64,000 nt of DNA from Ancylomarina sp. DW003 (GTDB lineage: Bacteria; Bacteroidota; Bacteroidia; Bacteroidales; Marinifilaceae), in assembly GCF_029029505.1 (NCBI RefSeq), contig NZ_JAKJSD010000009.1, positions 62,001 through 126,000 on the forward strand, in the 5' to 3' direction. The notes under the pieces were generated by a model, which saw nothing but the letters and a program-made list of their open reading frames with translations, had not been told where the DNA came from and did no database searches. The position numbers were made by a program, and so were the translations under genes. Positions 38,167-59,390 of this stretch are shown here, piece by piece. Within the stretch, counting starts at the first letter, position 1. Every line of letters begins with the position of its first letter.

Positions 38167-39648
38167 ATGACAAGAGAAGAACGAATGAAATTTTGTAGTG
38201 TTTGTGATCATTCCAAATTCGATACGAAGAAAGGTATCGTTTGTGGTTTAACAAATGCCAAGGCTGATTTCGAAGAAGAATGTCCCGATTTTACAGGGAA
38301 TAATAAGGAGGTGTACGTTTATAAAGCACCAGAGGAGGAAAGAGGTTTTGTAGAAAAAAAGTTCGTAGAATTCATTTCGATATTAAAGCCTAAGCAGGGC
38401 TTTTTTATGAGTCCCATTATCATCATTTTTTGTCTTTTGGTATTCGCATCAATGCTAATGTCGGATGTACATATTATTGATCCGACAATGGAGGATTTGG
38501 TGGCTTGGGGAGCGAACTTTACCACCTTAACTTTTCAAGGTCAATATTGGCGATTGTTAAGTAGCTGTTTTCTTCACATAGGTATTATTCATCTTTTATT
38601 CAATATGTATGCTTTGTTGTATATTGGAATGTTGTTGGAACCCGTTATTGGAAAATGGAAGTTAGGATTTGCTTTTCTTCTAACAGGAATAGGTGGAAGT
38701 CTTATGAGCCTGGCATGGCACGATATGATTGTAAGTGCCGGAGCATCGGGAGCAATCTTTGGTTTGTATGGGGTGTATATTGCGCTACTCACCACCAGTT
38801 TAATTGACAAGGAAAGTAAGAAGGGGATTTTAAGCAGTATCCTAATATTTATTGCTTATAATTTACTTTTTGGTTTAAGAGGAGGCGTTGATAATGCAGC
38901 TCATATTGGTGGTTTACTTTCAGGTCTTCTTTTGGGTTTTTCTTATTACCCAGTATTATCGAATCCACAAGCTAAAGTAAAAGGCCTATTGGTGCCATCT
39001 ATATTGATGATTTTTATAGTCACCTGTGGATTTGTTATAATATCAACACCAAAAAAATCAGTTGTTTACGAAATGCGATTAGCTGAGTTTATTGAGCTGG
39101 AACAGAAAGCTTTGAGTGTTTACCCACAGTATGTTACCGAAGCTAATTTAGATGCTATAAATGAAGATGGAATACCTAATTGGGAAAAATGTAAAGACAT
39201 TATTCTAAATCTTGACGAGCTACCAGGTTTCTCAGAAGAGATTTATCAAAGGAATGCTTTACTAAGAAGATATTGCAATTATCGGATAGCATCTTATAAG
39301 TTGATAATTAAAGCATCTACCGATAGACGTCGAATAATTTTTCAGAAAATAGAAGCTTATAATAAAACATTGGAATTTATTATACGAAAGTTGAAAGGGG
39401 AGGTGATTGCAGATAATCTGTTGAGATATAAAGAACCTGACGAACCCAAATTTGTAATTCGAGATTCTTATCCAATTCATAGTACACTGAAGACACCTTT
39501 GTATATTGTCGACGGAAAGTTTACCGAAGATATTTCGAGTATTAATCCTGCAAACATTAAGAATGTAAATGTGATGAAAGGAGCAGCAGCAAAGGCTGTT
39601 TATGGAATAAAAGGTGCAAATGGGGTTGTAATAGTGACAACGAAATAG
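38167..39648 (+). CDS. Rhomboid protease with zinc-binding N-terminus and SusC-plug-like tail
   Basis: 493 residues. A Cys cluster at the N-terminus (CSVCDHSKF, VCGL, EECPDF) precedes a six-helix rhomboid core (about 80-310) with catalytic Ser in SAGASGAIFGLYGVY and His in NAAHIGGLLSG. A soluble region (about 310-440) follows. The last 50 residues (PLYIVDGKFTED, then NVNVMKGAAAKAVYGIKG and ANGVVIVTTK) copy the TonB-receptor plug motif of SusC proteins. Rhomboids cut membrane proteins. The plug-like tail could be a docking module for the TonB system or a domain borrowed from one. The last 81 bp recur at 47977-48057. Confidence 0.8.
   Translation: MTREERMKFCSVCDHSKFDTKKGIVCGLTNAKADFEEECPDFTGNNKEVYVYKAPEEERGFVEKKFVEFISILKPKQGFFMSPIIIIFCLLVFASMLMSDVHIIDPTMEDLVAWGANFTTLTFQGQYWRLLSSCFLHIGIIHLLFNMYALLYIGMLLEPVIGKWKLGFAFLLTGIGGSLMSLAWHDMIVSAGASGAIFGLYGVYIALLTTSLIDKESKKGILSSILIFIAYNLLFGLRGGVDNAAHIGGLLSGLLLGFSYYPVLSNPQAKVKGLLVPSILMIFIVTCGFVIISTPKKSVVYEMRLAEFIELEQKALSVYPQYVTEANLDAINEDGIPNWEKCKDIILNLDELPGFSEEIYQRNALLRRYCNYRIASYKLIIKASTDRRRIIFQKIEAYNKTLEFIIRKLKGEVIADNLLRYKEPDEPKFVIRDSYPIHSTLKTPLYIVDGKFTEDISSINPANIKNVNVMKGAAAKAVYGIKGANGVVIVTTK
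39568..39648 (+). repeat. Direct repeat copy A (rhomboid 3' end)
   Basis: The 81-bp end of the rhomboid gene, 27 codons including stop. It matches 47977-48057 at 68 of 81 positions by hand alignment, with most differences at third codon positions. The two copies bracket about 8.3 kb. Confidence 0.8.
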
Positions 39649-39856: not shown

Positions 39857-40864
39857 ATGCTTTCGATTAAATTAGACATGACAAAAAATATAATTCTCCA
39901 TACAGTTGGCTGGATTCTATTGTTTTTATTACCTCCATTTCTTTTTGATAATTTTGAACGTATTAGTACCGTAGCTCCAGAACATTATTATTTATCATGC
40001 TTGTTGCTTATACCCATTTATTATATCAGTCGTATTTACCTTTTGCAGAAGAAGAGTATTATCTATATCATTGTCGTCATTGTATGTTTTATCGTGTATC
40101 TATATTTACCAGAGCTAATTTTTAAGATGTTACCGCAAAATGATTCCCTGTTAGACTTTATTGGCAGTAGTGGTCGTCATCGGCTTAATAGAATGAGACA
40201 GGGCTTGTCGATATTGTTTTTTGTGGTATTGGCAATAAACATTCTCGAAATTGCTTTTCAGCTTCGTAAGTCCAGCCAAAAGATAAGTATTGAAAAAAAC
40301 AAGGCAGAATTAGCACTCTTAAAGTCACAAATAGATCCTCACTTTCTTTTCAACAGTCTTAATTCGATTTATTACGAAGCCATTGAGAAAACAGACTTGG
40401 CACCCAAAGCAATTATGTCACTTTCAAACTTGATGCGCTATGTTCTGACTGATGCAAAATCGGAATATGTTAGTTTGGATCAGGAAATTAGTTATATAGA
40501 TGGTTATCTTGAACTGCAGAAACTACGACTGCCCTATAAAACCCATCTGAATTTCGATCTCTTGATAGAAAATCGAAAGGTGATGATTGCGCCTTTATTA
40601 TTAATCCCATTTATTGAAAATGCCTTTAAATATGGCGTAAGTTCCAGTTCCGATACTGAAATAAGTATAAAATTAAGGGTGGAAAAGAATTATCTGAGTT
40701 TTCAGGTTGAGAATAGCATTTTTATGAATAAGGGAGCAGATGGCACTCAGAGTGGATTAGACAATGTTAAGAAAAGACTTGCCTTGATTTATCCCGGCAA
40801 GCATGATCTAAGAATTAATCATGAAACAAATACCTATCAGGTTGATTTGTCTATAACTTTGTAA
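39857..40864 (+). CDS. LytS/YehU-type sensor histidine kinase
   Basis: 335 residues. Four membrane helices fill about 1-145, then a short coiled segment, then the His_kinase domain with the H-box SQIDPHFLFNSLNSIYYE and a GHKL N-box (IPFIENAFKYGV). The kinase pairs with the LytTR regulator that starts 2 nt after it. The start could also be the ATG at 39878. The sensor part has no ligand domain I recognise. It may control the DUF6515-kamA-NRPS genes downstream. Confidence 0.88.
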   Translation: MLSIKLDMTKNIILHTVGWILLFLLPPFLFDNFERISTVAPEHYYLSCLLLIPIYYISRIYLLQKKSIIYIIVVIVCFIVYLYLPELIFKMLPQNDSLLDFIGSSGRHRLNRMRQGLSILFFVVLAINILEIAFQLRKSSQKISIEKNKAELALLKSQIDPHFLFNSLNSIYYEAIEKTDLAPKAIMSLSNLMRYVLTDAKSEYVSLDQEISYIDGYLELQKLRLPYKTHLNFDLLIENRKVMIAPLLLIPFIENAFKYGVSSSSDTEISIKLRVEKNYLSFQVENSIFMNKGADGTQSGLDNVKKRLALIYPGKHDLRINHETNTYQVDLSITL

Positions 40865-40866
40865 GT

Positions 40867-41580
40867 ATGGTTTATAACCCACACATATCGTGCATCGCAA
40901 TTGACGATGAACCACGGGCTTTACGCTTAATTGAATCGTATTGCGATCGCATACCTTCAGTAAGCTTGCTTGAAAGCTTTAATAATCCCATTGAGGCATA
41001 TGACTATCTAAAAAACAATCTACCGGATATCATTTTTATTGATATCAATATGCCTGAGTTTTCGGGTATACAACTGATTAAGAATCTTGAGAAGAAGCCC
41101 CTGGTTATATTCACAACGGCTTACAGTAAATATGCTGTTGAAAGTTACAGTTTGGAAGCTATTGATTACCTTCTTAAGCCCTATGATTTTGAGCGGTTTA
41201 ATCAGGCAGTTCAAAAAGCCAAAAAGCACTTGGACATGTTGGGCAGCAAAACGATGTCTAAGATTTCAGAAGGAGATTCGATTACAGTGAAGGTTGATTA
41301 CAAAAGCCTTAAGATTAAATTGCAGGACATCACTCATATCGAGGCGATGGATAATTATGTGAAGATATTTACCGAAAGTAAATGCCATATTGTTTTACGG
41401 AGTCTAAAATCCATGCTCGAAGAACTGCCTGATGATCAATTTATTCAAGTGCATAAATCCTATGTGGTATCCTTAGGAAAGATTGATTATTTCATGAATA
41501 ATAGGATTAGCATAGGTCATTTTGAAATCCCTGTTGGACGTGTCTATTTAAATAAATTTAGAGATCTTTTACAGGGCTAA
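40867..41580 (+). CDS. LytTR-family response regulator
   Basis: 237 residues. Receiver domain 1-120 (AIDDEPRALRLIESYC, phospho-Asp in IIFIDINMPEFSG, KP in YLLKPYDF) and LytTR DNA-binding domain about 135-237 (SITVKVDYKSLKIKLQDITHIEA, FIQVHKSYVVSL). It starts immediately after the kinase gene and is translationally coupled. LytTR regulators bind pairs of short direct repeats; I did not identify such a pair in the 203 nt downstream with confidence. Confidence 0.93.
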   Translation: MVYNPHISCIAIDDEPRALRLIESYCDRIPSVSLLESFNNPIEAYDYLKNNLPDIIFIDINMPEFSGIQLIKNLEKKPLVIFTTAYSKYAVESYSLEAIDYLLKPYDFERFNQAVQKAKKHLDMLGSKTMSKISEGDSITVKVDYKSLKIKLQDITHIEAMDNYVKIFTESKCHIVLRSLKSMLEELPDDQFIQVHKSYVVSLGKIDYFMNNRISIGHFEIPVGRVYLNKFRDLLQG

Positions 41581-41789
41581 ACCTTAACTTTCTATTCAGT
41601 TTTGATCTCTACTGGCTATTCTCCCGATAGCTTGGGAGGACTTGCTGGTGTCTTTTAATTTAAGATTTCTCTATTAATTTCCGCCCTTCTTTGTCGTTCG
41701 CCAATTGATATATGTCGTTCACCAATGTTTGTGTACTAAAGGCTCGTTTATTGAGTCCAAGAGTCATATAAATTTTAAACAGAATGATT

Positions 41790-42356
41790 ATGACTAAGTT
41801 CTTTAAATTGCTTACAGTGCTGATACTACTTTCATGCAGCTTAAGCATCCAAGCTCAAAAAGCCAAGAGACACAACAAAAAACAGACTAAAGTAGCAGTG
41901 ATATCTACCAAAAGGCAACACTATAAAACATTGCCAAAATGGGGTGTAAAGGTTACTCATAAACCCTCTAATGCAAGCCTTATTAAGTATAGGGGCGTCA
42001 CCTATCATTTAAAAAATGGAATTTACTATACGTATATGGCTGGAAAATACAATATGTCGAAAGCTCCAGTGGGGCTGAGAGTCAAACTTATCCCTGCCAT
42101 GCATACGCGTATTATGCACAATGGGCATACTTACTACTATTATTACGGTACTTATTACACCTATATTCCCAATGCGAACAATTATGAAGTCATTACTCCT
42201 CCACTTGGTGCAATGGTTGATGTCTTGCCAAATGGCTACAATAAGATCGTCATTGAAGGCATAACCTATTGGTCTGATGGAAAAACCTATTACAAGGCTG
42301 TAGGTATCGAGAATGGTGATGTCATTTATGAAGTTGTTGGAAATACACAATTATAA
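41790..42356 (+). CDS. DUF6515-like exported protein, Tyr-rich repeats
   Basis: 188 residues with a signal peptide (FKLLTVLILLSCSLSIQAQ). The mature part has three repeats of the type P-x-G-x-x-V-x-x-x-P...G-x-x-Y-Y with YYTYMAGKY, YYYYYGTYYTYI and YWSDGKTYYKAV. This matches the DUF6515 pattern and may be cell-surface SH3-like units. It ends 14 nt before kamA in the same direction, so it may be the first gene of the biosynthetic operon or its envelope partner. ATG at 41790 is chosen over 41784 by signal peptide quality. Confidence 0.65.
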   Translation: MTKFFKLLTVLILLSCSLSIQAQKAKRHNKKQTKVAVISTKRQHYKTLPKWGVKVTHKPSNASLIKYRGVTYHLKNGIYYTYMAGKYNMSKAPVGLRVKLIPAMHTRIMHNGHTYYYYYGTYYTYIPNANNYEVITPPLGAMVDVLPNGYNKIVIEGITYWSDGKTYYKAVGIENGDVIYEVVGNTQL

Positions 42357-42369
42357 ACAAGAATAAATA

Positions 42370-43371
42370 ATGAAGATAGCACAGCTTGAGATGAATGGTC
42401 CAACAACAGAATTAGAAGAACTAAAATTAGTTAGTTCAAAATATCCTGTGAGAATAACAAAGTACTACAAAAGCCTTATTAAGGAAAAAAACGATGCAAT
42501 ATGGAAACAATCTATGCCCTCTTTAAAAGAATTAGAGGATTCTGGTTTAACTGATCCTTTAAGTGAAGAGCACGATAGTCCTGTTAAATGTATTGTGCAC
42601 CGTTATCCTGATAGAGTTTTGTTTTACTCCACTTCTGAATGTGCTATGTTCTGCCGTTTCTGTACCCGAAAACGAAAAGTAGGAAAAACAAATACTGTTT
42701 CAGAAAAAGATTGGAATGAAGGTTTTGAATATATAAAAAAACATCCTGATATAAGAGATGTGATTGTTTCAGGAGGCGATCCCTTAACCTTATCTGATGA
42801 AAGATTGGACTTTGTTCTTTCAAATTTGAGAAAGATAAAACATGTGCAGATTATTCGAATTGGTACTAGAATGCTGGTTGTGAACCCAGATCGAATTACA
42901 GATAAGTTGTGTTCAATTCTAAAACAGCACCACCCTCTTTATATCAATACGCATTTTAATCATCCAGATGAAATTACATATGAATCATCCGAAGCTTGTA
43001 ATAAATTAGCCAATGCTGGTATTCCACTCGGGAATCAGAGCGTTTTACTCAAGGGTGTTAACGATGATATTGAAACCATGAAGTTGTTGATGCAAAAACT
43101 ACTTGTGATAAGAGTAAAACCATATTACATCTATATGATGGATTTAGTACAAGGAGCTAGTCACTTTAGAACTTCAGTTCAGGCCGGATTGGATATAATT
43201 GAAGGATTAAGGGGGCATACATCTGGAATGGCCATTCCTCAGCTGGTAATAGATGCTCCACATGGAGGAGGAAAAATCCCTATTATGCCTGACACAATCT
43301 CTTCAAGGGAAAAAGGAGAAGTGATTTTGATAAATTTTGAAAATAAACATTTTAGCTATCCTTTGGAATAG
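42370..43371 (+). CDS. kamA: Lysine 2,3-aminomutase-like radical SAM enzyme
   Basis: 333 residues, shorter than Clostridium KamA (416). The radical SAM cluster is C91-x3-C95-x2-C98 (CAMFCRFC). The PLP Lys is K302 in DAPHGGGKIP. By hand alignment, D258 in MMDLVQG and D295 in VIDAPHGG correspond to D293 and D330 of the clostridial enzyme, which bind the lysine epsilon-amine; they sit 37 residues apart in both, and K302 follows D295 by the same 7 residues. Glutamate 2,3-aminomutase has other residues there. It should make L-beta-lysine. No beta-lysine acetyltransferase adjoins; a PPTase and NRPS do. The next gene starts 3 nt after the stop. Confidence 0.85.
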   Translation: MKIAQLEMNGPTTELEELKLVSSKYPVRITKYYKSLIKEKNDAIWKQSMPSLKELEDSGLTDPLSEEHDSPVKCIVHRYPDRVLFYSTSECAMFCRFCTRKRKVGKTNTVSEKDWNEGFEYIKKHPDIRDVIVSGGDPLTLSDERLDFVLSNLRKIKHVQIIRIGTRMLVVNPDRITDKLCSILKQHHPLYINTHFNHPDEITYESSEACNKLANAGIPLGNQSVLLKGVNDDIETMKLLMQKLLVIRVKPYYIYMMDLVQGASHFRTSVQAGLDIIEGLRGHTSGMAIPQLVIDAPHGGGKIPIMPDTISSREKGEVILINFENKHFSYPLE

Positions 43372-43374
43372 GCT

Positions 43375-44097
43375 ATGAAGATTTATATAGCAGAAATAAC
43401 GCCAAAATTACTTCGATTTATATACCAAGATTTGGATATTCTATCACCTGTTGAAAAAAAAGAAATTGCATTAATCGGAAATAATCAGGTCAAAATGAAT
43501 GTTCTTTCATCAAAAGTATTAAAAAGATATCTACTCTCAGAGTATTGTAATTTTGAAATACGACCTGCATCCTGGAAGTTTGATAAAACCACTGAAAACA
43601 AGCCGTATACAATTAATTCCATTTGTGAATCCAAACTTTTTTTTAATGTTTCGCATTGCGAAGATATTTTTGCGATAGCGATTTCCTCTAAAAATGAAGT
43701 TGGATTGGATATCGAATCATATGACTTTAAAATTGATGACCATCTTGCACAAACTGTATTTACTAATAGCGAAATAGTAAAATTACAGGGAGCCGATACT
43801 CTGTCAAAACAGAATCATTATTTGCGTTTGTGGACTATAAAGGAGGCCTATGCCAAATACTTGGGATTGGGAATTGGTATCGATTTTAAAGGAATCGATG
43901 TTATTGGTCGATCTGAGTCATGCTATGCAGCTATCTGCAATAAACACGTTCAACCCAATCTTATTTACAATGAAACAATCTATTTCTCTGGCAAAAGCTA
44001 TGCCTTGTCAGTAACTCATAAAGGGATAAACCCAAATCAAACCCCACAGATCTTTGAGTTTGACAGTTGCAACTTAATGAAGCTTCTGTCCAAATAA
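43375..44097 (+). CDS. Sfp-type 4'-phosphopantetheinyl transferase
   Basis: 240 residues. The Sfp signature is visible: FNVSHCEDIFAIAIS, VGLDIESYD (Mg-binding Asp and Glu) and RLWTIKEAYAKYLGLG. It should load phosphopantetheine onto Ser535 of the neighbouring carrier domain. It starts 3 nt after kamA and ends 17 nt before the synthetase ATG, so the three genes form one operon. Confidence 0.93.
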   Translation: MKIYIAEITPKLLRFIYQDLDILSPVEKKEIALIGNNQVKMNVLSSKVLKRYLLSEYCNFEIRPASWKFDKTTENKPYTINSICESKLFFNVSHCEDIFAIAISSKNEVGLDIESYDFKIDDHLAQTVFTNSEIVKLQGADTLSKQNHYLRLWTIKEAYAKYLGLGIGIDFKGIDVIGRSESCYAAICNKHVQPNLIYNETIYFSGKSYALSVTHKGINPNQTPQIFEFDSCNLMKLLSK

Positions 44098-44114
44098 TTA
44101 CTAAAAAACAAAAC

Positions 44115-47100
44115 ATGCTTTTACATCAAATATTCGAAGAACAAGCCCGTTTAACTCCAAATGCCCTGGCTGTAAAGAGTGGGAGTTGTGAATTTACATA
44201 TCAAAATATCGAAGATAGTGCGAATAAAGTCGCTCACTATCTCATTGCCAAGGGGGTTAAACCAGGAGATTTGGTTGCGATCTATTTTAAACGCTCCGAA
44301 TTGCCCATTGTCGCGATGTTAGGAATTCTAAAGGCAGGTGCAGCTTATGTGCCAATAGATAGGAGCTTTCCTGTGGATAGAATAAGGCATATTGTTAAGG
44401 ATGCCGAAATTAAAATCATACTAAGCGAGACGGGTTTGTTCTCAGAACTTGACGTCGACGCTTGCTTGCTTGACATCAATTCTCCTGAATTAAATGACCT
44501 GTCTTTGGAAAGAGGGGGCGAAAACCAAGTTCAGATTAAGAATGATGATTTGGCTTATATCATTTATACATCCGGATCAACCGGTCGTCCCAAGGGTGTC
44601 ATGGCACAACACTACAATGTTGTCCATTTCGTCAATTCTTTTAAGCAAGTCTGCAGGCTCAATTCCAAAGATCGTATTTACAATGGTTTTGCATACAGTT
44701 TTGATGGCTCGGTTGAGGAAATTTGGATGGCTTTTTCATGTGGGGCATCACTTATTGTTGCAAATGATGAGGTAACCAAACTGGCAAGTGAGGCCATTAA
44801 ATTAATAAACAGTGAAAAGGTCACTTTTCTGTCAACTGTGCCCACCTTTCTAAGTATGATAGAGAAAGAGCTTTATTCGGTGAAATTAATAATCCTGAGT
44901 GGCGAAGTTTGCCCCCCTGAACTGGTTAATAAATGGTCAAAAAATGGGGCGCGAATGTTAAATGTTTATGGACCAACGGAAACCACTGTCAATACAACAT
45001 ATTGGGAGTGCAAGGCAGGAGCGAAGGTGACCATTGGAAAGCCCATACCGAATTATGATATCTACATTTTGGATGAAAACCAAAAGCCTGTATCAGATGG
45101 TGATAAGGGGGAACTTTATATCGGGGGAAAGGGGCTTGCAAAAGGGTATTTAAATCAGGAAGAACTGACTAGGAATACCTTTGTTGACGGAATAATAAAA
45201 AATGAAAAGCTATATAAAACAGGTGATTTGGTCAGTCTGGATGCGAATAGGGAAATTCTTTTTCACGGACGTATTGACTCACAGGTCAAGGTGAGGGGAT
45301 ACCGTATAGAGCTCTCGGAAATAGAATCTATTTTGCGAGAGTTTCCCAATGTTTCAAGCTCGGTAGTTAGTGTTACTGAGAAAAATATGATCAAGGAACT
45401 GGTAGCCTATATTGTTTTAAAAGACAGTTCAAAGCCTGTTGTTTTCGACGATATATTAAGTATGATGGAACAGCATCTTCCTGCCTATATGATTCCAACT
45501 TATCTGGAAGTTGTAGATCGTCTCCCGCTATTAACGAGTGGCAAGGTGGACAAGAAAAAATTGCCTGTAGCCATGACGCCACTGATTAAGATGGACAGGG
45601 AGATAATCCCTCCTTCAAATGAGACTGAAAAGATACTGGTTGAAGCCTGGAAAGAGGTTTTTGGAATGGATACGATTTCAATTAGAGATAATTTCTTTAA
45701 CGATTTGGGAGGGCATTCCCTTCTTGCTGCAAAAGTAGCCTCAGTACTCCGGCTAAAATACAATATCGAAATAGCAATCCGGGATTTATATGTTTTTCCG
45801 ACCATAGAAAAACTATCCGATACGGCCTACTCGAAGATGAATGCTTGCGAAACATCTGTTGAAGACGAGTCTGTGGACCTGCCTCCCAAAAGTAAAATTG
45901 CGACATTGATTAAAGCCATGCAGGCACTCTCGATGTACCTGATTTACGGTCTAGGTGTTTTACCAATGGTTGCATTAATCCTTTATTATCTGAAATACAC
46001 CGAAAATGAGCTTTCCATCAACAAACTGATCTTTGGCAGTGCAGGAATTATGATGCTGATGTATCCCATTGTTCTCTTATTGGGAGTTGCTCTTAAATGG
46101 TTGATCATAGGTCGAATAAAACCGGGGGTTTATCCTGTTAATGGATTCTATTATTACAGGTGGTGGCTTACCGATCGAATACAGGCATTCACTGGTTCGC
46201 AATTGCTTGCAGGAAGTCCATTGATGTCCCTTTATTATCGTTTAATGGGTTCAAATATAGGTCGTCATTGTACTATTGATACTCACTTATGCTCAAGTTG
46301 GGACAATATTAGCATTGGTAACAATACATCTATCGGAAATGAGACTCAGCTATTGGGAACCTCAATTGAGAATGGGTATTTAAGAATCGGAAAAATTGAG
46401 ATTGGAGATAATTGCTTTGTTGGCATTCACTCCTATATTGGCTTGAATACCCAGATGGTAAACAACTCGAGGCTTGGAGACATTTCAGCCCTGCAAGACA
46501 ATGAACAGGTTAAAGCAGATGAATCACGGCAGGGGTCACCATCGGTAATAACGCAAGTTAATGTACCAAAGGGTAAATCATACAAGTCGAAACCCATCTT
46601 TTGGGGTACAATGCACCTGTTTGCCATCTTCGCACTCTTCGCATTTCTTATGATTGCAGGTATGCCTTCAATCGTAACAATCAAGTTTGGTCTGGATTCC
46701 CCAAGCCTGTTAATCAAGATCGCCAGTATTCTTGTATCGGGTCCCTTGGCAGTGCTGTCTTTCTGTATTGCAGCAGTCCTAGTCAAAAAGATTGTTTTCA
46801 ATAAAATTACCCCGGGAACGTATAAGACAGAGAGTTTGTTCTTTTTGCGCAAGTGGTTTGTCGATAGTATTATCAGACTAAGTGTGATGTTGGTGAAACC
46901 AGTATACACCACGATATTTTTTCCTCATTGGTTAAGAATGCTGGGGGCTAAAGTTGGAAAGAATGCAGAAATATCAACCGTGTCACAATTCTCTCCTGAA
47001 CTCATGATTATAGGCGATGAGAGTTTCTTCGCCGATGGATCAATTATAGGCGGGAGACATTTTTACAATGGCTATATGGAAGTTTCCATTACAGAAATTG

Positions 47101-47978
47101 GCAATCGAAGTTTTGTGGGTAACAGTGCCATTCTTCCTGTGGGAACAAGTATTGGAGACAACTGTTTGATAGGGGTATTGTCCGTTCCTCCTGTTATAAG
47201 CGGGAAAATTGAAGACCGTACTGATTGGTTGGGATCTCCATCCTTCAATCTTCCCAGAAGGCAAATTGTTAAAGGCTTTGATGATAAGGTTATTTTTAAA
47301 CCGACTTTAAAATTATACATACAAAGGTATTTGATTGATTTTCTACGAATCCTTATCCCATCCACAATTGAGATATTGGGTGTATTATTCACATTTTATA
47401 CCGCTTATTTTCTTTATGAAACACAGGGTATTTATAGCATGCTTGGCTTATTGCCCTTAATTGCCCTCATGGTTGGAATTGCAAGCACACTCATTGTTGT
47501 TTTTGTTAAGTGGCTGCTAATGGGACGAATAAGAGCGACCGTAAAACCACTGTGGTCAACATTTGTTTGGTTTAACGAAGCTGTAAACGGAGCTTACGAA
47601 AGTATAACGGCACAAATGCTTTCCCCTTTTATTGGAACACCATTTTTTGCCCCTTTTTTGCGTTTACTAGGGTGTAAGATTGGTAAAAATGTGCATATGG
47701 GTACAAGCCTGTTTTCAGAGTTTGATTTAGTTGAAATAGAGGACAATGTTAGTCTTAATGCAGGCGTTGTCATTCAAAATCATTTGTTCGAAGACAGAAT
47801 AATGAAAGCTTCATCGCTGCGGATAAAAGAAGATTGCAATATTGGAAACATGTCCATCGTTTTATATGATTCCATCATTGACAGTAATACATCAGTCGCA
47901 CCATTGTCATTGGTGATGAAGGGGGAGAAACTGCCTTCAAATTCGAAATGGATAGGTATCCCTTGTCAGGTTGTTTAA
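44115..47978 (+). CDS. Single-module A-T NRPS with Pls-like membrane/LbH C-terminus
   Basis: 1287 residues. The A domain (about 1-490) has core motifs YIIYTSGSTGRPKGVM, YGPTETTVN, YKTGDL, GRIDSQVKVRGYRIELSE and SGKVDKKKLP. Its code by alignment to GrsA is D197 G198 E201 S240 I260 S262 V284 V292 N293 K477, resembling lysine codes such as DAESIGSVCK. The carrier Ser is S535 (DLGGHSLL). From about 600 come three units, each a pair of membrane helices (605-665, 833-890, 1080-1135) and a left-handed beta-helix region (715-795, 945-1030, 1190-1270). This is the terminal-domain layout (TIGR02353-like) of epsilon-poly-lysine synthetase. There is no condensation or thioesterase domain. Predicted product: oligo- or poly-(beta-)lysine. 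An in-frame TTG at 44067 overlaps the PPTase and is not favoured. Confidence 0.88.
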   Translation: MLLHQIFEEQARLTPNALAVKSGSCEFTYQNIEDSANKVAHYLIAKGVKPGDLVAIYFKRSELPIVAMLGILKAGAAYVPIDRSFPVDRIRHIVKDAEIKIILSETGLFSELDVDACLLDINSPELNDLSLERGGENQVQIKNDDLAYIIYTSGSTGRPKGVMAQHYNVVHFVNSFKQVCRLNSKDRIYNGFAYSFDGSVEEIWMAFSCGASLIVANDEVTKLASEAIKLINSEKVTFLSTVPTFLSMIEKELYSVKLIILSGEVCPPELVNKWSKNGARMLNVYGPTETTVNTTYWECKAGAKVTIGKPIPNYDIYILDENQKPVSDGDKGELYIGGKGLAKGYLNQEELTRNTFVDGIIKNEKLYKTGDLVSLDANREILFHGRIDSQVKVRGYRIELSEIESILREFPNVSSSVVSVTEKNMIKELVAYIVLKDSSKPVVFDDILSMMEQHLPAYMIPTYLEVVDRLPLLTSGKVDKKKLPVAMTPLIKMDREIIPPSNETEKILVEAWKEVFGMDTISIRDNFFNDLGGHSLLAAKVASVLRLKYNIEIAIRDLYVFPTIEKLSDTAYSKMNACETSVEDESVDLPPKSKIATLIKAMQALSMYLIYGLGVLPMVALILYYLKYTENELSINKLIFGSAGIMMLMYPIVLLLGVALKWLIIGRIKPGVYPVNGFYYYRWWLTDRIQAFTGSQLLAGSPLMSLYYRLMGSNIGRHCTIDTHLCSSWDNISIGNNTSIGNETQLLGTSIENGYLRIGKIEIGDNCFVGIHSYIGLNTQMVNNSRLGDISALQDNEQVKADESRQGSPSVITQVNVPKGKSYKSKPIFWGTMHLFAIFALFAFLMIAGMPSIVTIKFGLDSPSLLIKIASILVSGPLAVLSFCIAAVLVKKIVFNKITPGTYKTESLFFLRKWFVDSIIRLSVMLVKPVYTTIFFPHWLRMLGAKVGKNAEISTVSQFSPELMIIGDESFFADGSIIGGRHFYNGYMEVSITEIGNRSFVGNSAILPVGTSIGDNCLIGVLSVPPVISGKIEDRTDWLGSPSFNLPRRQIVKGFDDKVIFKPTLKLYIQRYLIDFLRILIPSTIEILGVLFTFYTAYFLYETQGIYSMLGLLPLIALMVGIASTLIVVFVKWLLMGRIRATVKPLWSTFVWFNEAVNGAYESITAQMLSPFIGTPFFAPFLRLLGCKIGKNVHMGTSLFSEFDLVEIEDNVSLNAGVVIQNHLFEDRIMKASSLRIKEDCNIGNMSIVLYDSIIDSNTSVAPLSLVMKGEKLPSNSKWIGIPCQVV

Positions 47979-50953: not shown

Positions 50954-52417
50954 ATGATAGAAGAAATTGTAACGGTTCACGATAAATTTTCGGTGGAGAT
51001 TAAAATGGGCTACGAGGCTCGTAAAGATCGTAAGGTGAATGAATTTTCAGTAAAGACTTGGTTGTTTATTCCAAGCAAACTGGATATCAATTCATCTACC
51101 TATAAGAAAGAGGACTTTTATAATGATTTTAATTCCAATATTCGCCTGATAACACCGCCATATTCTCTTAGGGAAATTGCTCAAACTGAGAGTGCTGTTT
51201 TCTCCTATTTGAAAGAAGCTTTTCAGAAGGTAGCCAATTACCCAAATTCGAAGAATGAGGCCAATTACGAGTATCATATTCGAATGTTTCATTCCATTTT
51301 GAAATCGGCATTGCGTCGAGAGATTCAGCATATGCTGAAAAATGGGATGGATGACGATAGGCGTTTCCTGATTGAGAAGTATCTTGAAGATATTAGGACG
51401 ATTGCCGAGCAGTATCGCAATTTGCGTCGCATTGTTAGCGTGTCTACCATACAAAAGGAAATGTTCGATTACTATTTGTTTGGCGATGAGTTTATGTCCA
51501 ATCAATTTGAGCAGCACTCGTATTACTTACATCGTGGCTTGAAGAAAATGTATCCCGATGATTTAGCTAGCAGTAAGGAAGATATTCTAAACCTGATTAG
51601 AGATGAGATTGCATACAAGCGGTCGAAAGGTTATTTGGTTGTTGAGAAAGATTCGCAAGATAGAAACCGCTGGTTGGTTCATCGCCGGAGTGTGTTTAAT
51701 AAATATTTCGAAGGGCAACTTTTATTGAACTCTCGAAAGAAAAAGGAGGGACTTTTTGTGATGCAATTACTTTATAGTATTGCTGCAGGAATGGCTATGA
51801 TTATTGGTGCTGGATTGACTTTCTTCTTTCAAAAGAGCCTGGGTGGTTTCACAATTCCCTTATACGTTGCTCTGGTGATTATTTATATGCTAAAAGATAG
51901 AATCAAAGATTTGAGTCGTCTCTACTTGGTAGGAAAAATTAACAAACGCTTTTTCGATCACAAAACGGTGATTCGAGTAAAAGGGGATGAGAAAATAGGA
52001 TGGTGTAAGGAGAGTTTTGATTTCGTAAAGGAAGACTCAGTTCCTTTGCGTGTGATGAAACATCGTAACCGTTCTCGAATTATCGATATTGAGAGCAGGG
52101 GCGTAGGTGAGAAGATTGTCTTCTATCGTAAATTGCTTCGCTTGGATCAGAAAGCACTGGATAATTCCTATGGTAATTATAACATTACAGGTGTTGCGGA
52201 TATTATCCGTTTCAACGTGTCTCGCTTTATCCAAAAAATGGATAACCCTGAGATTCCTCTTTATTATTTGGACGATGATGAGTTTGAAAAACTATCAGGA
52301 GAAAAGGTTTATTTTATAAACATGGTTCTTCGTTTTAAACTCGATGATGAAACAAGCTATCGTCGTTATCGTATTATCTTTAACCGAAGAGGAATTAAGA
52401 AGGTGGAGAAGGTATAA
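50954..52417 (+). CDS. Conserved membrane protein of unknown function
   Basis: 487 residues. The frame opens with TTG at 50906, but ATG at 50954 is the credible start. The N-terminal 260 residues are soluble and charged (RLITPPYSLREIAQTE, helical). Two membrane helices lie at about 275-325 (LLYSIAAGMAMIIGAGLTFFF, then LYVALVIIYML). The C-terminal 160 residues return to a soluble mixed fold (RFKLDDETSYRRYRIIFNRRG). I recognise no family. The layout suggests a large cytosolic protein tethered by a hairpin of helices. Confidence 0.7.
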   Translation: MIEEIVTVHDKFSVEIKMGYEARKDRKVNEFSVKTWLFIPSKLDINSSTYKKEDFYNDFNSNIRLITPPYSLREIAQTESAVFSYLKEAFQKVANYPNSKNEANYEYHIRMFHSILKSALRREIQHMLKNGMDDDRRFLIEKYLEDIRTIAEQYRNLRRIVSVSTIQKEMFDYYLFGDEFMSNQFEQHSYYLHRGLKKMYPDDLASSKEDILNLIRDEIAYKRSKGYLVVEKDSQDRNRWLVHRRSVFNKYFEGQLLLNSRKKKEGLFVMQLLYSIAAGMAMIIGAGLTFFFQKSLGGFTIPLYVALVIIYMLKDRIKDLSRLYLVGKINKRFFDHKTVIRVKGDEKIGWCKESFDFVKEDSVPLRVMKHRNRSRIIDIESRGVGEKIVFYRKLLRLDQKALDNSYGNYNITGVADIIRFNVSRFIQKMDNPEIPLYYLDDDEFEKLSGEKVYFINMVLRFKLDDETSYRRYRIIFNRRGIKKVEKV

Positions 52418-52456
52418 AATAGAGTTCTCCAACTAGATTTAGAATAATATTTGAAA

Positions 52457-52490
52457 GCGATTTTCATCAATGTGGAATCGTTTTTTTTTT
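52457..52490 (+). terminator. Terminator after the membrane protein
   Basis: CGATTTTCA arm pairs with TGTGGAATCG imperfectly and is followed by a run of ten T residues. Confidence 0.7.
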
Positions 52491-52647
52491 GATAAATTTC
52501 GGATTGCCTTGGAACATGATTTAGCAATAATTATAATAAAAATCAACACTTGTAAGATTCAGATTCATAGTCTGATGTCGTTTTGTTTTTAATTTACTTG
52601 AATTTTGTTTGGAATTCATCTAGATTATTAACTAGATTTACACTCGT

Positions 52648-52880
52648 ATTATGGTTCTTGTTTATCTCGTCTGAGAGAACAGGATGAAAAGGGAATCCGG
52701 TTAGAATCCGGAGCTGTCCCCGCAGCTGTAAGCCTTGTGAATTTTAAGCCCTCTTTATGATCACTTTTCACATTTTGTGGATGGGAAGATCGCTTAAAAT
52801 AAGGTGAGCCAGAAGACCTGCCATGGTAATTTGTATTTCGTAGCTTTCGGGTGAAAGGCGAAGAAGGAGCAGTGTCCCTT
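52648..52880 (+). ncRNA. Cobalamin riboswitch 1
   Basis: Conserved AdoCbl-riboswitch elements appear in order: GGGAATCCGGTTAGAATCC, then GAGCTGTCCCCGCAGCTGT, and the B12 box AGCCAGAAGACCTGCC at 52807-52822. The 3' part includes CTTTCGGGTGAAAGGCGAAG. The boundaries are approximate. It is followed not by a full gene but by a 40-codon frame and then a second riboswitch. It probably adds a second B12-sensing step to the downstream operon. Confidence 0.9.
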
Positions 52881-52928
52881 TCTTTAAAATTCCCAATGCT
52901 ACCATTAATTCATTAAAACTAAAAAGTG

Positions 52929-53051
52929 ATGAACATTGATGGAGCTGGACAATTATTTAAGGTCCAGAATAAACTTAATCAAATGCCGGCTTATTTCCTG
53001 CATCGTATTTCTATGTCTTATCTACAGGTTTACTTTCCTCCTGGAAACTAA
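52929..53051 (+). other. Small ORF between the two riboswitches (uncertain)
   Basis: ATG at 52929 opens a 40-residue frame (ends TFPPGN-like: YLQVYFPPGN) with no hydrophobic leader and no family resemblance. A stem (CTGGAC at 52945 with GTCCAG at 52962) falls inside it. It may be a leader peptide, an expression platform, or the remains of a lost B12-regulated gene. Confidence 0.25.
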
Positions 53052-53247
53052 TTACTGTCATTTTATATTTTCTCTACTCATAAGTTTATGACATCGTGTT
53101 CAATGAAACATGCGAAGATTGTCAATTCTTAATCGGCAAGCTTAAATTGTCTTGCTTGTAAGTGCTTGACTTAATCTTGTTTTAAAGAATCTGTGTTTAG
53201 ATGAATGAACTTGATTGAGATACGAGAAATATATCATGTTTGTTAAA

Positions 53248-53470
53248 ATATTGGTGTTTGTTTCAAACAATCGTTTGAGCGAATGAAAAGGGAATTCGGT
53301 GTGAATCCGAAACAGTACCCGCTGCTGTATTTCTCGTATATATTCAAATCTACCTCCGCCACTGTTATATTTCTAAGCTGAGTTTAGAAAACTGATGGGA
53401 AGGCCTTTGAAAATGAGATGAGTCAGAAGACCTGCCAAAATATAATCGTTGAATTTTCGGGTTGTAAAAT
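53248..53470 (+). ncRNA. Cobalamin riboswitch 2
   Basis: GGGAATTCGGTGTGAATCC, then CAGTACCCGCTGCTGT, and the B12 box AGTCAGAAGACCTGCC at 53421-53436. It ends about 37 nt before the start of the BtuG-like gene, so it likely controls the whole B12 uptake operon by blocking translation or transcription when cobalamin is plentiful. Confidence 0.92.
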
Positions 53471-53506
53471 TCAATTTTCTATTTATTTTTTATACATAAA
53501 ATTGTT

Positions 53507-54826
53507 ATGATTTTAAGAAAAATGGCATGGGCTCTTGTATTAGCCTATTCGTTGTTAATGGTATCATGTTCAGATGATGACAGTATTAAAGCACCTTCTG
53601 AAATTACCACAGCTTTTGAAAACAATAAGTTGGAATTACCTATAGGGGAAATTGTAAAATTATCCCCAAGCTTTGAGGCTGAAGGTGAACCAGAATATTT
53701 ATGGGAACTGGATGGGAAAACTGTTTCAACAGAAGCAGCCTATGATTTTGAATCTTCACAAACAGGTCAATTTAAGTTAACTTTTGAGGTAAGCAATAAA
53801 AGCGGCGCTCAACGTGTCGATTATGCTGTTCGTGTTTACGGTCCTTATTCAAGTGGTGTTTTTATTGTGAATGAAGGTTGGTTTGGACATGAACCCGGAA
53901 ATGTAAATTTCTGGGATCGTCAATCCGATGATATTCAACACAAGGTTTACGAGAAGGAAAACCCTGATAAGCAGTTAGGGGTAACGACACAATATGCGTG
54001 CATAAATGATTCGAAGTTATTCTTGGTTTCAAAGGATCCTGACAATTTGGTTGTTGTGAATTCTGAAACGCTTAAGGAATTAGGTCGAGTATCTCTGGAA
54101 AAAGGTAATAGCCAGGCAAGAGGCTTTGCATATCACGACGCAACGTCTGGTTTCTTAAGTAGCTCAGACGGAATTTATGAAGTAGATCTATCGCAATACG
54201 CATTAGGTAATAAAATTGATGGTGTATCTGGCGAAGTTGGGAACCTGACGGTACTTAATGGTAAACTGTTTGCACTTAAAGCGAAAGAGTTAATTGTAAT
54301 TGATATTGCTAGTTCGAAGATTGAAAAAGTCTTCACTTTGGCTAATAATGCTGGTGGACTGGTTAAGGATAAGGATGATAATATTTGGGTTGCTGCCAGA
54401 ACTCAATTGTTAAAAGTTAAATCAACAGATTTATCTTCAGAACTGCTTGACCTTAACAATGGCATCGACATTAACTCTAGTTATGGTTGGGCTTGGAACT
54501 CGGGAAGCTTGACTTACAGTAAAACCAATAACACGCTATACTTTATGCAAAAAGGAGGATGGAGTGGTATCCGTCAGGTATCATCTTATAATATCGATAC
54601 TAAAGCAGCTAAAGAAGTGTGTACTATTGATTCTGATTATATGATTTATGGTGCCGGAACTTATGTCGATCCTGTATCAAATAAACTATATGTAACAGCT
54701 ATTAAAGGTTACGGACAAGCTGCAAATTTCAATCGCCTTTATGTATATGATCTGGATGGAACTCAAGAAAAAGTGCTTGACTATGAGCACTTCTATTTTG
54801 CTGCACTTTGTGTCGTTAATGAATAA
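53507..54826 (+). CDS. BtuG-like surface propeller lipoprotein with PKD-like domain
   Basis: 439 residues. The lipoprotein Cys is C21 (LLMVSCSDDD). A PKD/Ig-like domain spans about 35-110 and a DUF5074/YncE-type beta-propeller fills the rest (GVFIVNEGWFGHEPGNVNFW, then regularly spaced blades). In Bacteroides, BtuG propellers bind cobalamin very tightly at the cell surface and hand it to BtuB. The riboswitch upstream and btuB in the same operon support this. An added PKD domain is unlike the classical BtuG. Confidence 0.8.
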   Translation: MILRKMAWALVLAYSLLMVSCSDDDSIKAPSEITTAFENNKLELPIGEIVKLSPSFEAEGEPEYLWELDGKTVSTEAAYDFESSQTGQFKLTFEVSNKSGAQRVDYAVRVYGPYSSGVFIVNEGWFGHEPGNVNFWDRQSDDIQHKVYEKENPDKQLGVTTQYACINDSKLFLVSKDPDNLVVVNSETLKELGRVSLEKGNSQARGFAYHDATSGFLSSSDGIYEVDLSQYALGNKIDGVSGEVGNLTVLNGKLFALKAKELIVIDIASSKIEKVFTLANNAGGLVKDKDDNIWVAARTQLLKVKSTDLSSELLDLNNGIDINSSYGWAWNSGSLTYSKTNNTLYFMQKGGWSGIRQVSSYNIDTKAAKEVCTIDSDYMIYGAGTYVDPVSNKLYVTAIKGYGQAANFNRLYVYDLDGTQEKVLDYEHFYFAALCVVNE

Positions 54827-54932
54827 TTGTAACCTCAATTGAAAATGAAGCAACTGTCTGGAAAGGAAGGTTTTTGTTCTATGTAATCATCCTTTTTGGA
54901 CAGTTTATTTAAAGACTCAAAAATTCAATACA

Positions 54933-56057
54933 ATGAAACTTAAATATTATTTTTTACTAAGCTGTTCCATCTTGTTTTTTCTTACATCGTGTAGCGATGA
55001 TGAGGATGCAGTATTGCCTGTTTTAAACTCATCAGGTTTGGAAAAAAACGAGTTGGAGTTGAAACTTGGAGAAAGTTTAAGTATTTCTCCCAAAATAAAT
55101 ACTGACGACCTGGATTATCAATGGTTAGTAAATGATAAAGCTGTTTCTAATGAAGCAACTTATACCTTTAATCCTGATGCTGTTGGAACTTACACAATTA
55201 AGTTTAACGCAAGTAATTCAAGTGGTTCGGTTGATTGCCAGTATCAAATTGTTGTTATTAAGGTTAGAACAAAAACGGATGAGTCATCTGCCTATTTAAC
55301 AAGCTTATTTGAATACAAGCCAGCACCAGGTCAGTTTGTAAACGAAGGATACGGTTTGATGAAAGATGCCGAAGCCATTCTTGGGAAACCCAAATATGGC
55401 TTAGTAAGCCTAGGTGGATTTGGAGGTTATATTTCGCTCGGGTTTGATCATACGCTTATAGATGAAGAAGGTGATGATTTTATTGTTTACGGCAATGCTT
55501 TTAAGGGTAGTTCTGAGGCTGGAATCGTAATGGTCAGTTTCGATTATAACGGAAATGGTAAAGCTGACGACGCGTGGTTTGAACTAGCAGGTAGCGAGTA
55601 TAATAAAGATGAGGTGATTCATAATTACGAGATTACTTATACCAATCCCAAAACCTATGCAGATGTACCTTGGACAGATAATCAGGGCAATACAGGCTTC
55701 GTGAAAATCAACGATTGGCATGAGCACAATTATTATCCTGAATTTATCGACGAGCAAGACGAAATCACTTTTACAGGAACTTTATTGCCAAACAATAAGG
55801 GAACTAATGATATGGGCTGGATCGTTTACAACGAATTCGAAAAAGGTTATGTGGATAATTACAGTGAGGAGTACGCTGAACTTAAAGGTAATAAGTTTGA
55901 TATTTCATGGGCTGTAAATAACAAGGGTGAAAAAGTAAAATTACCGGGTGTTGACTTTATTAAAGTTTATACGGCTGTTAATATCGATGGTGGCATATTA
56001 GGTGAAGCCTCTACCGAAATAATGGGAGCGGCAGATATAAGTCTACTGGAAGAGTAA
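54933..56057 (+). CDS. Surface lipoprotein of the B12 operon (PKD-like plus unnamed domain)
   Basis: 374 residues with lipoprotein Cys C20 (FLTSC). A PKD-like domain at about 35-115 resembles that of the preceding gene (LELKLGESLSISPK). The rest has GYGLMKDAEAILG, SLGGFGGYISLGFDH and a Ca-binding-like FDYNGNGKADD. Homologous proteins occur in Bacteroides cobalamin loci. It may be a second corrinoid-binding surface protein, but ligand binding has not been shown that I know of. It lies between the BtuG-like gene and btuB. Confidence 0.7.
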   Translation: MKLKYYFLLSCSILFFLTSCSDDEDAVLPVLNSSGLEKNELELKLGESLSISPKINTDDLDYQWLVNDKAVSNEATYTFNPDAVGTYTIKFNASNSSGSVDCQYQIVVIKVRTKTDESSAYLTSLFEYKPAPGQFVNEGYGLMKDAEAILGKPKYGLVSLGGFGGYISLGFDHTLIDEEGDDFIVYGNAFKGSSEAGIVMVSFDYNGNGKADDAWFELAGSEYNKDEVIHNYEITYTNPKTYADVPWTDNQGNTGFVKINDWHEHNYYPEFIDEQDEITFTGTLLPNNKGTNDMGWIVYNEFEKGYVDNYSEEYAELKGNKFDISWAVNNKGEKVKLPGVDFIKVYTAVNIDGGILGEASTEIMGAADISLLEE

Positions 56058-56201
56058 AATATCAGATAACATATTAGTTAGTAATGAGTGTTGTTATTGC
56101 CAAATTTCATTTATAGGTGTGTTAAATGGAGTTTGGCAATTTCTACTTTCCTAATTCGACTTGTCCCTATTAATTATATTAACGTATTCATATTTATTGG
56201 A

Positions 56202-58250: not shown

Positions 58251-58253
58251 ATC

Positions 58254-59363
58254 ATGAAACATCAAAATATTGTTTTATTAATTATTGTATTTCTGTCTTG
58301 TTGTTCGTGTATGGATGATGAAGCCTATATGAATGAGCAGAAATTGAACAAAACTGTTTCTGATATTATAAATGAAGATTACGTCTTGATTTCTAACGAG
58401 GGAAACTTTATGTATGGTAATGCATCAATTAGCTATTACAACAAAACGACTCATGAACTGATAAATGATGTGTTTTCGAAACAGAATATTATGCCCATTG
58501 GCGATGTTGTGCAATCTATTGTTTTACGAGATGGTTTGGCATACATTGTGGTTAATAATTCTGGGAAGATATTTGTGATTAATATGGGGAAGTTTCCTCA
58601 CTTGCCGGCCTTTGCCTATGTTGGGAAAGTAACGGGCTTGGTGTCGCCTCGTTACATTCATTTTATAAATAATAGTAAGGCTTACATTACCGATTTGTAT
58701 GCCAAATCCATCACAATATTTAATCCTGAGACATTAGACAAAACCGGATTTATATCTGTTGATAATAAGTCAAGCGAATTTTACCAGCATCCAACCGAGC
58801 AGATGGTTCAGTACGATAAGTATGTGTTTACCAACTGCTGGAGTTACGATAATAAACTTCTAGTGATTGATTCAGAAAAGGATATTGTGGTAGATTCCAT
58901 TAATGTAGGTTTGCAACCCACTTCATTGGTTTTAGATAAAAACAATAAGCTTTGGACCATAACCGATGGTGGCTATAAGGGTAGTCCATATGGTTTTGAG
59001 GCTCCTTCCTTGTGGAAAATTGATGCTAAAAGCCGAAAAGTAGAACAGGTTTTTCATTTTAAAGAAGGGGATAGAGGATCGGAAGTCAAACTTAATGGGG
59101 CAAAAGACAGTCTTTATTTTATAAATAAAGGTATTTGGCGCATGTCAATTACTGACGAAAATTTGCCCAGCAAGGCTTTTATATCAGGTGAAAACAAATT
59201 GTTTTATGGTTTGAATATTGACCCTGTTGACTCGGATATTTATGCTATTGATGCCATTGATTATGTGCAACCTGGCCTTGTATATCGAATTTCATCACAA
59301 GGTAAGCCAATTGATACAATGCGTGTGGGAATTATACCTGGTGAAGCAGTTTTTAGTCATTAA
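58254..59363 (+). CDS. Second BtuG-like propeller lipoprotein
   Basis: 369 residues, starting 3 nt after btuB. The leader ends in FLSCCSC. A DUF5074/YncE-type propeller follows (YVLISNEGNFMYGNASISYYN, then SPRYIHFINNSKAYITDLYA and GLQPTSLVLDKNNKLW). It lacks the PKD-like domain of the first copy. It is probably a corrinoid-binding surface protein for the same receptor. Two BtuG-like proteins in one operon could capture different cobamides. Confidence 0.8.
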   Translation: MKHQNIVLLIIVFLSCCSCMDDEAYMNEQKLNKTVSDIINEDYVLISNEGNFMYGNASISYYNKTTHELINDVFSKQNIMPIGDVVQSIVLRDGLAYIVVNNSGKIFVINMGKFPHLPAFAYVGKVTGLVSPRYIHFINNSKAYITDLYAKSITIFNPETLDKTGFISVDNKSSEFYQHPTEQMVQYDKYVFTNCWSYDNKLLVIDSEKDIVVDSINVGLQPTSLVLDKNNKLWTITDGGYKGSPYGFEAPSLWKIDAKSRKVEQVFHFKEGDRGSEVKLNGAKDSLYFINKGIWRMSITDENLPSKAFISGENKLFYGLNIDPVDSDIYAIDAIDYVQPGLVYRISSQGKPIDTMRVGIIPGEAVFSH

Positions 59364-59390
59364 CATACAAAGCCTATAAGAAATAATTCG

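What the first reader, a model, noticed from the sequence alone, without database searches (positions are those of the whole stretch)
42370..47978. A kamA - PPTase - Pls-like synthetase operon predicted to make poly- or oligo-beta-lysine
Three tightly packed genes. (1) A compact lysine 2,3-aminomutase keeps the radical SAM cysteines C91, C95 and C98, the PLP Lys K302, and both aspartates that bind the lysine epsilon-amine (D258 and D295), 37 residues apart as in the clostridial enzyme. (2) An Sfp-type PPTase. (3) A single A-T module with no condensation or thioesterase domain, followed by three membrane-hairpin plus beta-helix units, the layout of epsilon-poly-lysine synthetase. The adenylation code read by hand (DGESISVVNK) shares E239, S278 and I299 with lysine codes. 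From memory, poly-beta-lysine-type polymers are described from Streptomyces. In a Bacteroidota genome such a pathway would be new, and the product would be a cationic antimicrobial or cell-surface polymer.
Basis: partly seen in the sequence, partly recalled or inferred. Interest (0 to 1): 0.92.

Follow-up and report, generated by a model that had tools for sequence, protein, structure and literature searches.

The report
Predicted poly-beta-lysine operon in a Bacteroidota
A small regulated gene cassette in a Bacteroidota bacterium is predicted to turn lysine into beta-lysine and string it into a positively charged, possibly antimicrobial polymer that has so far been reported from an actinomycete.

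Summary
Window 42370-47978 encodes a KamA-family lysine 2,3-aminomutase, a PPTase and a full-length Pls/PosA-family synthetase (TIGR02353, 588 bits). Its adenylation code, DGESISVVNK, is the one a 2023 paper prints for the epsilon-poly-beta-lysine synthetase of Streptoalloteichus hindustanus. The window protein lies in a clade with that enzyme and 13 other DGE-code proteins (support 84). A KamA gene lies within 1 kb of the synthetase at 11 of 17 DGE-code loci and at 0 of 25 loci with other codes. Apart from same-genus G795, the Bacteroidota homologues whose code I read are lysine-like or ornithine-like. G795 keeps the operon under purifying selection. In same-genus G793 the site is empty, so the gained or lost unit is histidine kinase, LytTR regulator, kamA, PPTase and pls, with a 21-bp-period direct repeat found once in each of the two carriers and in none of five other genomes. 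The genome also has a separate lysine-fermentation kamA. The chemistry is known; the host phylum and the regulated cassette appear new. No product has been shown.

The parts
39857..40864 (+). LytS-type histidine kinase (PF06580), first gene of the gained or lost unit
   Evidence: Pfam; 86% identical and syntenic in G795; absent between rhomboid and htrA in G793
40867..41580 (+). LytTR response regulator (PF00072 + PF04397), predicted regulator of the operon
   Evidence: 86% identical in G795; absent at the G793 site
41693..41726 (+). Two direct repeats GTCGTTCRCCAAT with 21-bp period, predicted LytTR operator
   Evidence: one exact copy in G000 and one in G795, none in five other genomes
41784..42356 (+). 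DUF6515 gene with a signal-peptide-like N-terminus (by eye), 13 bp upstream of kamA; not at the G795 locus, probably not part of the core pathway
42370..43371 (+). kamA: compact lysine 2,3-aminomutase, makes beta-lysine (predicted)
43375..44097 (+). Sfp-like 4'-phosphopantetheinyl transferase, activates the carrier domain (predicted)
44115..47978 (+). Pls/PosA-family synthetase, A-T plus membrane polymerisation domain, code DGESISVVNK; predicted epsilon-poly-beta-lysine synthetase

Best explanation
The locus is a probably horizontally acquired, regulated cassette for epsilon-linked poly- or oligo-beta-lysine. KamA (radical SAM, PLP) isomerises L-lysine to beta-lysine. The PPTase loads the carrier domain of the synthetase with phosphopantetheine. 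The adenylation domain activates beta-lysine and loads it on the carrier domain, and the membrane domain (a three-fold beta-helix on six helices) joins monomers iteratively and releases a cationic polymer. The adjacent histidine kinase and LytTR regulator control the operon through two direct repeats upstream of it. Shown by sequence: gene content, family membership, code, conserved active-site residues, synteny, empty site and repeat. Inferred: monomer, polymerisation, isopeptide linkage, regulation, direction of transfer. Chain length, export and biological role are not addressed by any data here.
For: TIGR02353 over cut-off across the whole model. The code DGESISVVNK is printed for the S. 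hindustanus epsilon-poly-beta-lysine synthetase (PMC10522769 section 11). S. hindustanus holds two TIGR02353 proteins at E 1e-30: one of the window's clade (code read here DGESVSVVNK) and one with a Dab-like code, DFECLSCVSK. The window protein groups with DGE-code proteins, apart from the other Bacteroidota homologues. KamA lies within 1 kb in 11 of 17 DGE-code loci against 0 of 25 others (Fisher p about 3e-6, rows not independent); these loci were fetched by the synthetase, not by KamA. All 11 linked KamAs keep both lysine-binding Asp, the PLP Lys and CxxxCxxC. A PPTase-kamA-pls cassette is also found in a Pirellulales bin (L064) and a proteobacterial bin (L087), and outside the genus their KamAs are the nearest to the window's (support 87/88). 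Intact in G795, dN/dS 0.09 for pls and 0.14 for kamA. No ablB match in the genome, and lysine catabolism has its own kamA.
Against: No biochemistry here. The primary paper on epsilon-poly-beta-lysine (ACS Chem Biol 2022) is not held; I rely on another paper's account of it. My reading of the S. hindustanus code differs from the printed one at position 5 (V against I). Six of 17 DGE-code loci have no kamA within their flanks. Two of these are cut contigs and one is an A-T protein without the membrane domain, but L060, L062 and L069 are fair counter-examples. S. hindustanus has its nearest KamA about 33 kb away on the same contig, and another on a different contig. The draft genome of L082 shows no KamA-family match at all (9 of the 10 genomes searched do). 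The window KamA passes neither the lysine nor the glutamate equivalog cut-off; it lacks the C-terminal part. The fork joining the window pair to the other DGE-code proteins has SH-aLRT 84 in a quick tree that flags odd amino-acid make-up in many rows, and the KamA grouping (87/88) is not a starred branch and comes with a long-branch warning. I did not search for an exporter.
Confidence: 0.85

Rival explanations
1. The synthetase makes ordinary epsilon-poly-L-alpha-lysine and the neighbouring kamA serves another purpose.
For: The enzyme family and a small residue at code position 2 suit a lysine-sized substrate; other Bacteroidota of the order carry lysine-like codes; three DGE-code loci with good flanks have no kamA nearby.
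Against: The code differs from the lysine-like DAESIGTVIK at positions 2, 6, 7 and 9 and matches the one printed for the beta-lysine enzyme; kamA is linked only to the DGE code class in the loci examined; no ablB match for an acetyl-beta-lysine osmolyte; the fermentation kamA is separate.
Confidence: 0.08
2. KamA is a glutamate or other aminomutase and the polymer is built from another beta-amino acid.
For: TIGR04368 (glutamate 2,3-aminomutase) also scores 421.6 bits.
Against: The lysine model scores higher, both side-chain-binding aspartates are kept here and in all 11 linked KamAs, and the A-domain keeps the Glu at code position 3 that binds the side-chain amine in PosA.
Confidence: 0.03
3. 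The cassette is decaying or silent.
For: Patchy presence: 2 of 5 genomes in the genus, and no full-length homologue at E 1e-60 in the other 51 of 56 family genomes; a DUF6515 gene sits between the repeat and kamA in this genome but not in G795.
Against: All three genes are open in both genomes, dN/dS 0.09-0.26, and the repeats match the same pattern exactly in both.
Confidence: 0.04

Closest known systems
Epsilon-poly-beta-lysine synthetase of Streptoalloteichus hindustanus (Yamanaka 2022, known here through PMC10522769; locus L060)
   Same: Domain layout, DGES[I/V]SVVNK code, same clade, 43% identity over the full length.
   Different: Bacteroidota host; kamA and PPTase in one operon (around L060 no kamA within about 8 kb; nearest about 33 kb away); LytTR two-component system beside it.
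Pirellulales PPTase-kamA-pls cassette (L064)
   Same: Same three gene families packed together, code DGESVSVVNK, Pls 47% and KamA 58% identical.
   Different: Gene order PPTase-kamA-pls; no homologue of the window HK or LytTR in this or the other loci at E 1e-10.
Epsilon-poly-L-lysine synthetase Pls (PDB 7wew A domain) and delta-poly-L-ornithine synthetase PosA (8g95)
   Same: A-T-membrane domain family TIGR02353.
   Different: Different codes; PosA is a single-gene operon in A. baumannii (PMC10522769, passages).
Lysine 2,3-aminomutase KamA/AblA (2a5h)
   Same: Radical SAM, PLP and substrate residues.
   Different: Lacks the C-terminal part of the clostridial enzyme; second copy in the genome, 49% identical to the fermentation KamA.
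Beta-lysine oligomer of streptothricins (stand-alone A domain; PMC10522769 and PMC9606270, passages)
   Same: Epsilon-linked L-beta-lysine chain.
   Different: Made by a stand-alone adenylation domain, attached to a nucleoside-like antibiotic (recall), not by a Pls-type membrane synthetase.

Membership tests
Pls/PosA family (TIGR02353) | A-T followed by the approx. 690-residue terminal domain over the curated cut-off | tested here: met
   588 bits against 423.1, model 1-694; six C-terminal hydrophobic stretches; model with three beta-helix units
Epsilon-poly-beta-lysine synthetase | Beta-lysine specificity code | tested here: met
   DGESISVVNK equals the code printed in PMC10522769; the S. hindustanus locus L060 itself reads DGESVSVVNK
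Epsilon-poly-beta-lysine synthetase | Phylogenetic placement with the characterised enzyme | tested here: met
   15-row DGE-code clade at SH-aLRT 84; 16 rows with L073 (code DAESVGTVVK) at 100; quick tree with composition warnings
Epsilon-poly-beta-lysine synthetase | Activation of beta-lysine and polymer formation | not testable with these tools
   Needs enzyme assay and mass spectrometry
Lysine 2,3-aminomutase (TIGR03820 equivalog) | Curated cut-off 525.4 bits | tested here: not met
   453.7 bits; profile matched to position 353 of 417. It looks like a lysine aminomutase by residues, but is not an equivalog by score
Lysine 2,3-aminomutase (TIGR03820 equivalog) | CxxxCxxC, PLP Lys and the two lysine-binding Asp | tested here: met
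   the roles of the residues are recalled
LytTR-regulated operon | Pair of direct repeats of about two-turn period upstream of the operon | tested here: met
   21-bp period at 41693-41726; expected spacing from passages of PMC11347149 and PMC6193735
LytTR-regulated operon | Binding of the regulator to the repeat | not testable with these tools
   Needs a gel-shift assay

The most novel reading that the evidence does not exclude
A mobile, self-contained cassette (sensor kinase, LytTR regulator, aminomutase, PPTase, synthetase, own operator) makes epsilon-poly-beta-lysine on demand in a Bacteroidota that also ferments lysine through beta-lysine. The same kamA-pls partnership, with about three KamA lineages, occurs in Planctomycetota, Acidobacteriota, Pseudomonadota and Actinomycetota records, so beta-lysine polymers would be a widespread bacterial product and not an actinomycete speciality.
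Probability: 0.7. Interest if true: 0.6.

Novelty: new member of a known kind. Interest (0 to 1): 0.55.

Why it matters
If true, it extends a recently found cationic polymer from an actinomycete to a Bacteroidota and, by genome context, to several other phyla. It also gives a simple genomic signature (DGE code plus kamA) for finding producers. Epsilon-linked lysine polymers are used or studied as preservatives and cell-penetrating carriers (start of the abstract of PMC8117764 in the listing; start of the abstract of PMC9606270 in the listing and passages), and the adjacent sensor-operator pair offers a handle on when a bacterium would make one.

Tried and rejected
Considered and rejected: (a) EF-P beta-lysylation enzyme EpmB: it scores far lower (252.8 bits), and the gene sits in an operon with a synthetase. 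(b) Osmolyte N-acetyl-beta-lysine: no ablB match at E 0.001 in the genome. (c) Lysine fermentation: a separate kamA-kamB-kamC-kamD-kamE cluster lies on contig C7. (d) DUF6515 as a pathway gene: no match at the G795 locus and no homologue at E 10 in the ORFs of the other loci tested. (e) An operon promoter by sigma-70 consensus: the scan found no more than chance (36 against a mean of 34.4 in shuffles).

Led nowhere: hmmscan of ORFs beside the S. hindustanus, Bdellovibrionales and Enhygromyxa synthetases gave no partner gene; several of these stop-to-stop frames in GC-rich DNA are probably not genes. Paper searches for Bacteroidota polylysine synthetases or NAPAA clusters listed nothing on the point among the rows shown (15 of 1,619; 15 of 53), and a word search of the main text of PMC10522769 found no 'Bacteroid'. 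This library lacks most subscription papers and I could not see supplements, so 'not in print' is weak. A search of plasmid records with the synthetase listed homologues of at most 36.4% identity in the 15 rows shown; their codes were not read.

Rows dropped: L043, L044, L088 and L089 (no A-domain ORF at E 1e-30) do not enter the code table, so of the 12 order genomes over the cut-off 11 codes were read; L070 and L074 are duplicates of L033 and L034; a partial second ORF in L067 was dropped. Several of the 25 'other' loci have a short flank on one or both sides (L034, L037, L038, L068, L072, L083), so 0 of 25 is partly limited by contig ends. The six DGE-code loci without kamA are L058 (upstream cut at 1.3 kb), L060, L062, L069, L081 (A-T protein only) and L082 (cut). 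L092 and L096, fetched later, have other codes and no kamA hit and are not in the 25. The ten class-survey loci had only about 1.5 kb of flank. The structure alignment used the window and 24 of the 32 loci.

Full report
What is there. Gene spacings are 3 bp (kamA to PPTase) and 17 bp (PPTase to the likely ATG of the synthetase at 44115). KamA aligns over 305 residues with Clostridium lysine 2,3-aminomutase (2a5h, E 1.5e-104). It keeps the radical SAM cysteines, the PLP lysine and both aspartates that hold the lysine side chain; these roles are recalled. It ends short of the C-terminal part of the profile, which probably explains why it falls below the NCBIfam lysine cut-off (453.7 of 525.4 bits). 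It still scores higher with the lysine model than with the glutamate, arginine or EF-P models.

The synthetase. It is a full-length member of the Pls/PosA family. The C-terminal 687 residues were modelled from a 25-row alignment with mean pLDDT 91.8 and pTM 0.90; the secondary structure shows three repeats of a helical hairpin followed by a beta-helix-like run of short strands. Foldseek against the PDB gives weak matches only (best E 5.6e-4, TM-score by query length at most 0.18 in the 50 rows shown). They are mostly hexapeptide beta-helix acyltransferases such as LpxD and maltose O-acetyltransferase, besides gamma-carbonic-anhydrase-like chains. That agrees with the PosA model described in PMC10522769 section 13.

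The monomer. Reading the ten code positions by alignment gives DGESISVVNK. PMC10522769 (section 11 read whole; section 10; section 13; other passages) states that the synthetase with code DGESISVVNK from Streptoalloteichus hindustanus makes epsilon-poly-beta-lysine, and that the discovery was aided by a lysine 2,3-aminomutase gene adjacent to a Pls homologue. It also names Methylomarinum as having the code; its A domain gave very little soluble protein. The S. hindustanus genome reached through L060 holds two TIGR02353 proteins at E 1e-30. One reads DGESVSVVNK (L060). The other reads DFECLSCVSK (L092), with the Phe that the paper assigns to diaminobutyrate/diaminopropionate enzymes; this suits the poly-D-Dab synthetase known from this species (PMC8225329, passages). 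So the printed and the read code differ at one conservative position.

Family-wide test. From 48 loci (12 and 4 from Bacteroidota surveys, 32 from genome contigs), 42 distinct A-domain proteins could be read. A KamA homologue (phmmer E 1e-5) lies within 1 kb in 11 of 17 with a DGE code and in 0 of 25 with other codes (Fisher p about 3e-6, with the caveat that rows are related and some flanks are short). The linked KamAs fall into about three groups, 25-58% identical to the window's, on either strand relative to pls, and all 11 keep the lysine-binding aspartates. Besides L064 and L087, L061 has a weak PPTase hit overlapping its kamA. Against this: in S. hindustanus no kamA lies within about 8 kb of L060. 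One lies about 33 kb away on the same contig; another, of the group linked to pls in related actinomycetes, lies on a different contig. The two Bdellovibrionales genomes have KamA genes, but on other contigs. The draft genome of L082 has none found.

Origin. In the tree of 41 proteins the window and its same-genus relative G795 group with DGE-code proteins from Actinomycetota, Planctomycetota, Acidobacteriota, Bdellovibrionota, Myxococcota and Pseudomonadota records (fork 84; with L073, which has a lysine-like code, 100). The other Bacteroidota homologues lie elsewhere. Those whose code I read are DAES.GTV.K (lysine-like) or DMEHNGS..K (ornithine-like). Full-length matches are rare: over the family cut-off in 12 of 393 genomes of the order and 6 of 395 of the phylum sample; full-length at E 1e-100 in 11 of 395 of the class sample; and full-length in 2 of 56 in the family, both in the window's genus. 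All four counts include this genome and the samples overlap. Among the codes read, only this genome and G795 carry the DGE code; G300 of the order sample has no readable A domain. That it is a Bacteroidota rests on kinship: G064, of the same order, holds a contig of the same length as the one titled 'Bacteroidota bacterium' (565,374 bases).

The unit. In G795 the order is rhomboid, HK, LytTR, kamA, PPTase, pls, htrA, hsp20, with pls the most conserved of the nine proteins matched (91%) and no DUF6515 match. In G793, which has no match to the synthetase, rhomboid and htrA are convergent neighbours with about 100 bp between them. Hence the gained or lost unit is about 39.6-48.4 kb of the window: HK-LytTR-(DUF6515)-kamA-PPTase-pls. 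The other two genomes of the genus do not show the clean site: G792 keeps htrA and hsp20 but not the rhomboid gene beside them, and in G794 only the 503-aa gene was matched in the stretch fetched. dN/dS between this genome and G795 is 0.09 (pls), 0.14 (kamA) and 0.26 (PPTase) (script set to YN00 with NG86 as fallback), so all three are under purifying selection.

Regulation. Between LytTR and the operon lies GTCGTTCRCCAAT twice with a 21-bp period (41693-41726). With up to 3 mismatches the pair occurs once in this genome and once in G795, both exact, and not in three other genomes of the genus, one of the family and one of the order. It is not met in 100 shuffles of the window. LytTR regulators bind 9-bp direct repeats 10-13 bp apart, which gives a similar period (PMC11347149, passages; PMC6193735, passages). 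The fit in period, position and co-occurrence makes this the likely operator of the adjacent regulator; binding is not shown.

Metabolic setting. The genome holds a second, canonical KamA over the lysine cut-off (631.8 bits) at the head of a kamB-kamC-kamD-kamE, CoA-transferase subunit, thiolase, acyl-CoA dehydrogenase and Etf cluster, so it probably ferments lysine. The window KamA is 49% identical to that one and 58% to the Pls-linked Pirellulales KamA. It looks like a dedicated partner, not a recent local duplicate.

Verdict. The chemistry is known since 2022 by report; the host phylum, the regulated cassette and the cross-phylum kamA-pls linkage are what is added. The product, its length, its export and its role remain to be shown.

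Noticed in passing
G000 contig C7, about 78-89.5 kb (L057): Complete-looking lysine fermentation cluster kamA-kamB-kamC-kamD-kamE with a CoA-transferase subunit, thiolase, acyl-CoA dehydrogenase and Etf.
   Followed up: yes
window 52417-60299: Second apparent insertion: DUF5074, PKD_3 and TonB-receptor genes; the homology with G792, G793 and G795 jumps over this stretch.
   Followed up: partly
window 38167-39648: Rhomboid protease-like protein whose C-terminus matches a TonB plug domain just over the cut-off, an odd fusion.
   Followed up: no
window 41784-42356: DUF6515 gene placed between the predicted operator and kamA in this genome but not in G795.
   Followed up: partly
L033, L041, L044, L054: Other Bacteroidota Pls-type genes have a PPTase next door without a kamA hit.
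   Followed up: no
L081: S. hindustanus carries a separate A-T protein with the same DGESVSVVNK code but no Pls C-terminal domain hit.
   Followed up: no
genome of L080 (Citricoccus sp. CH26A, G791): Five TIGR02353 matches over the cut-off in one genome.
   Followed up: no
L084 (Pirellulales): Variant code DGEDLTVVNK next to a canonical full-length KamA (700.9 bits), 9 bp apart as stop-to-stop ORFs.
   Followed up: no
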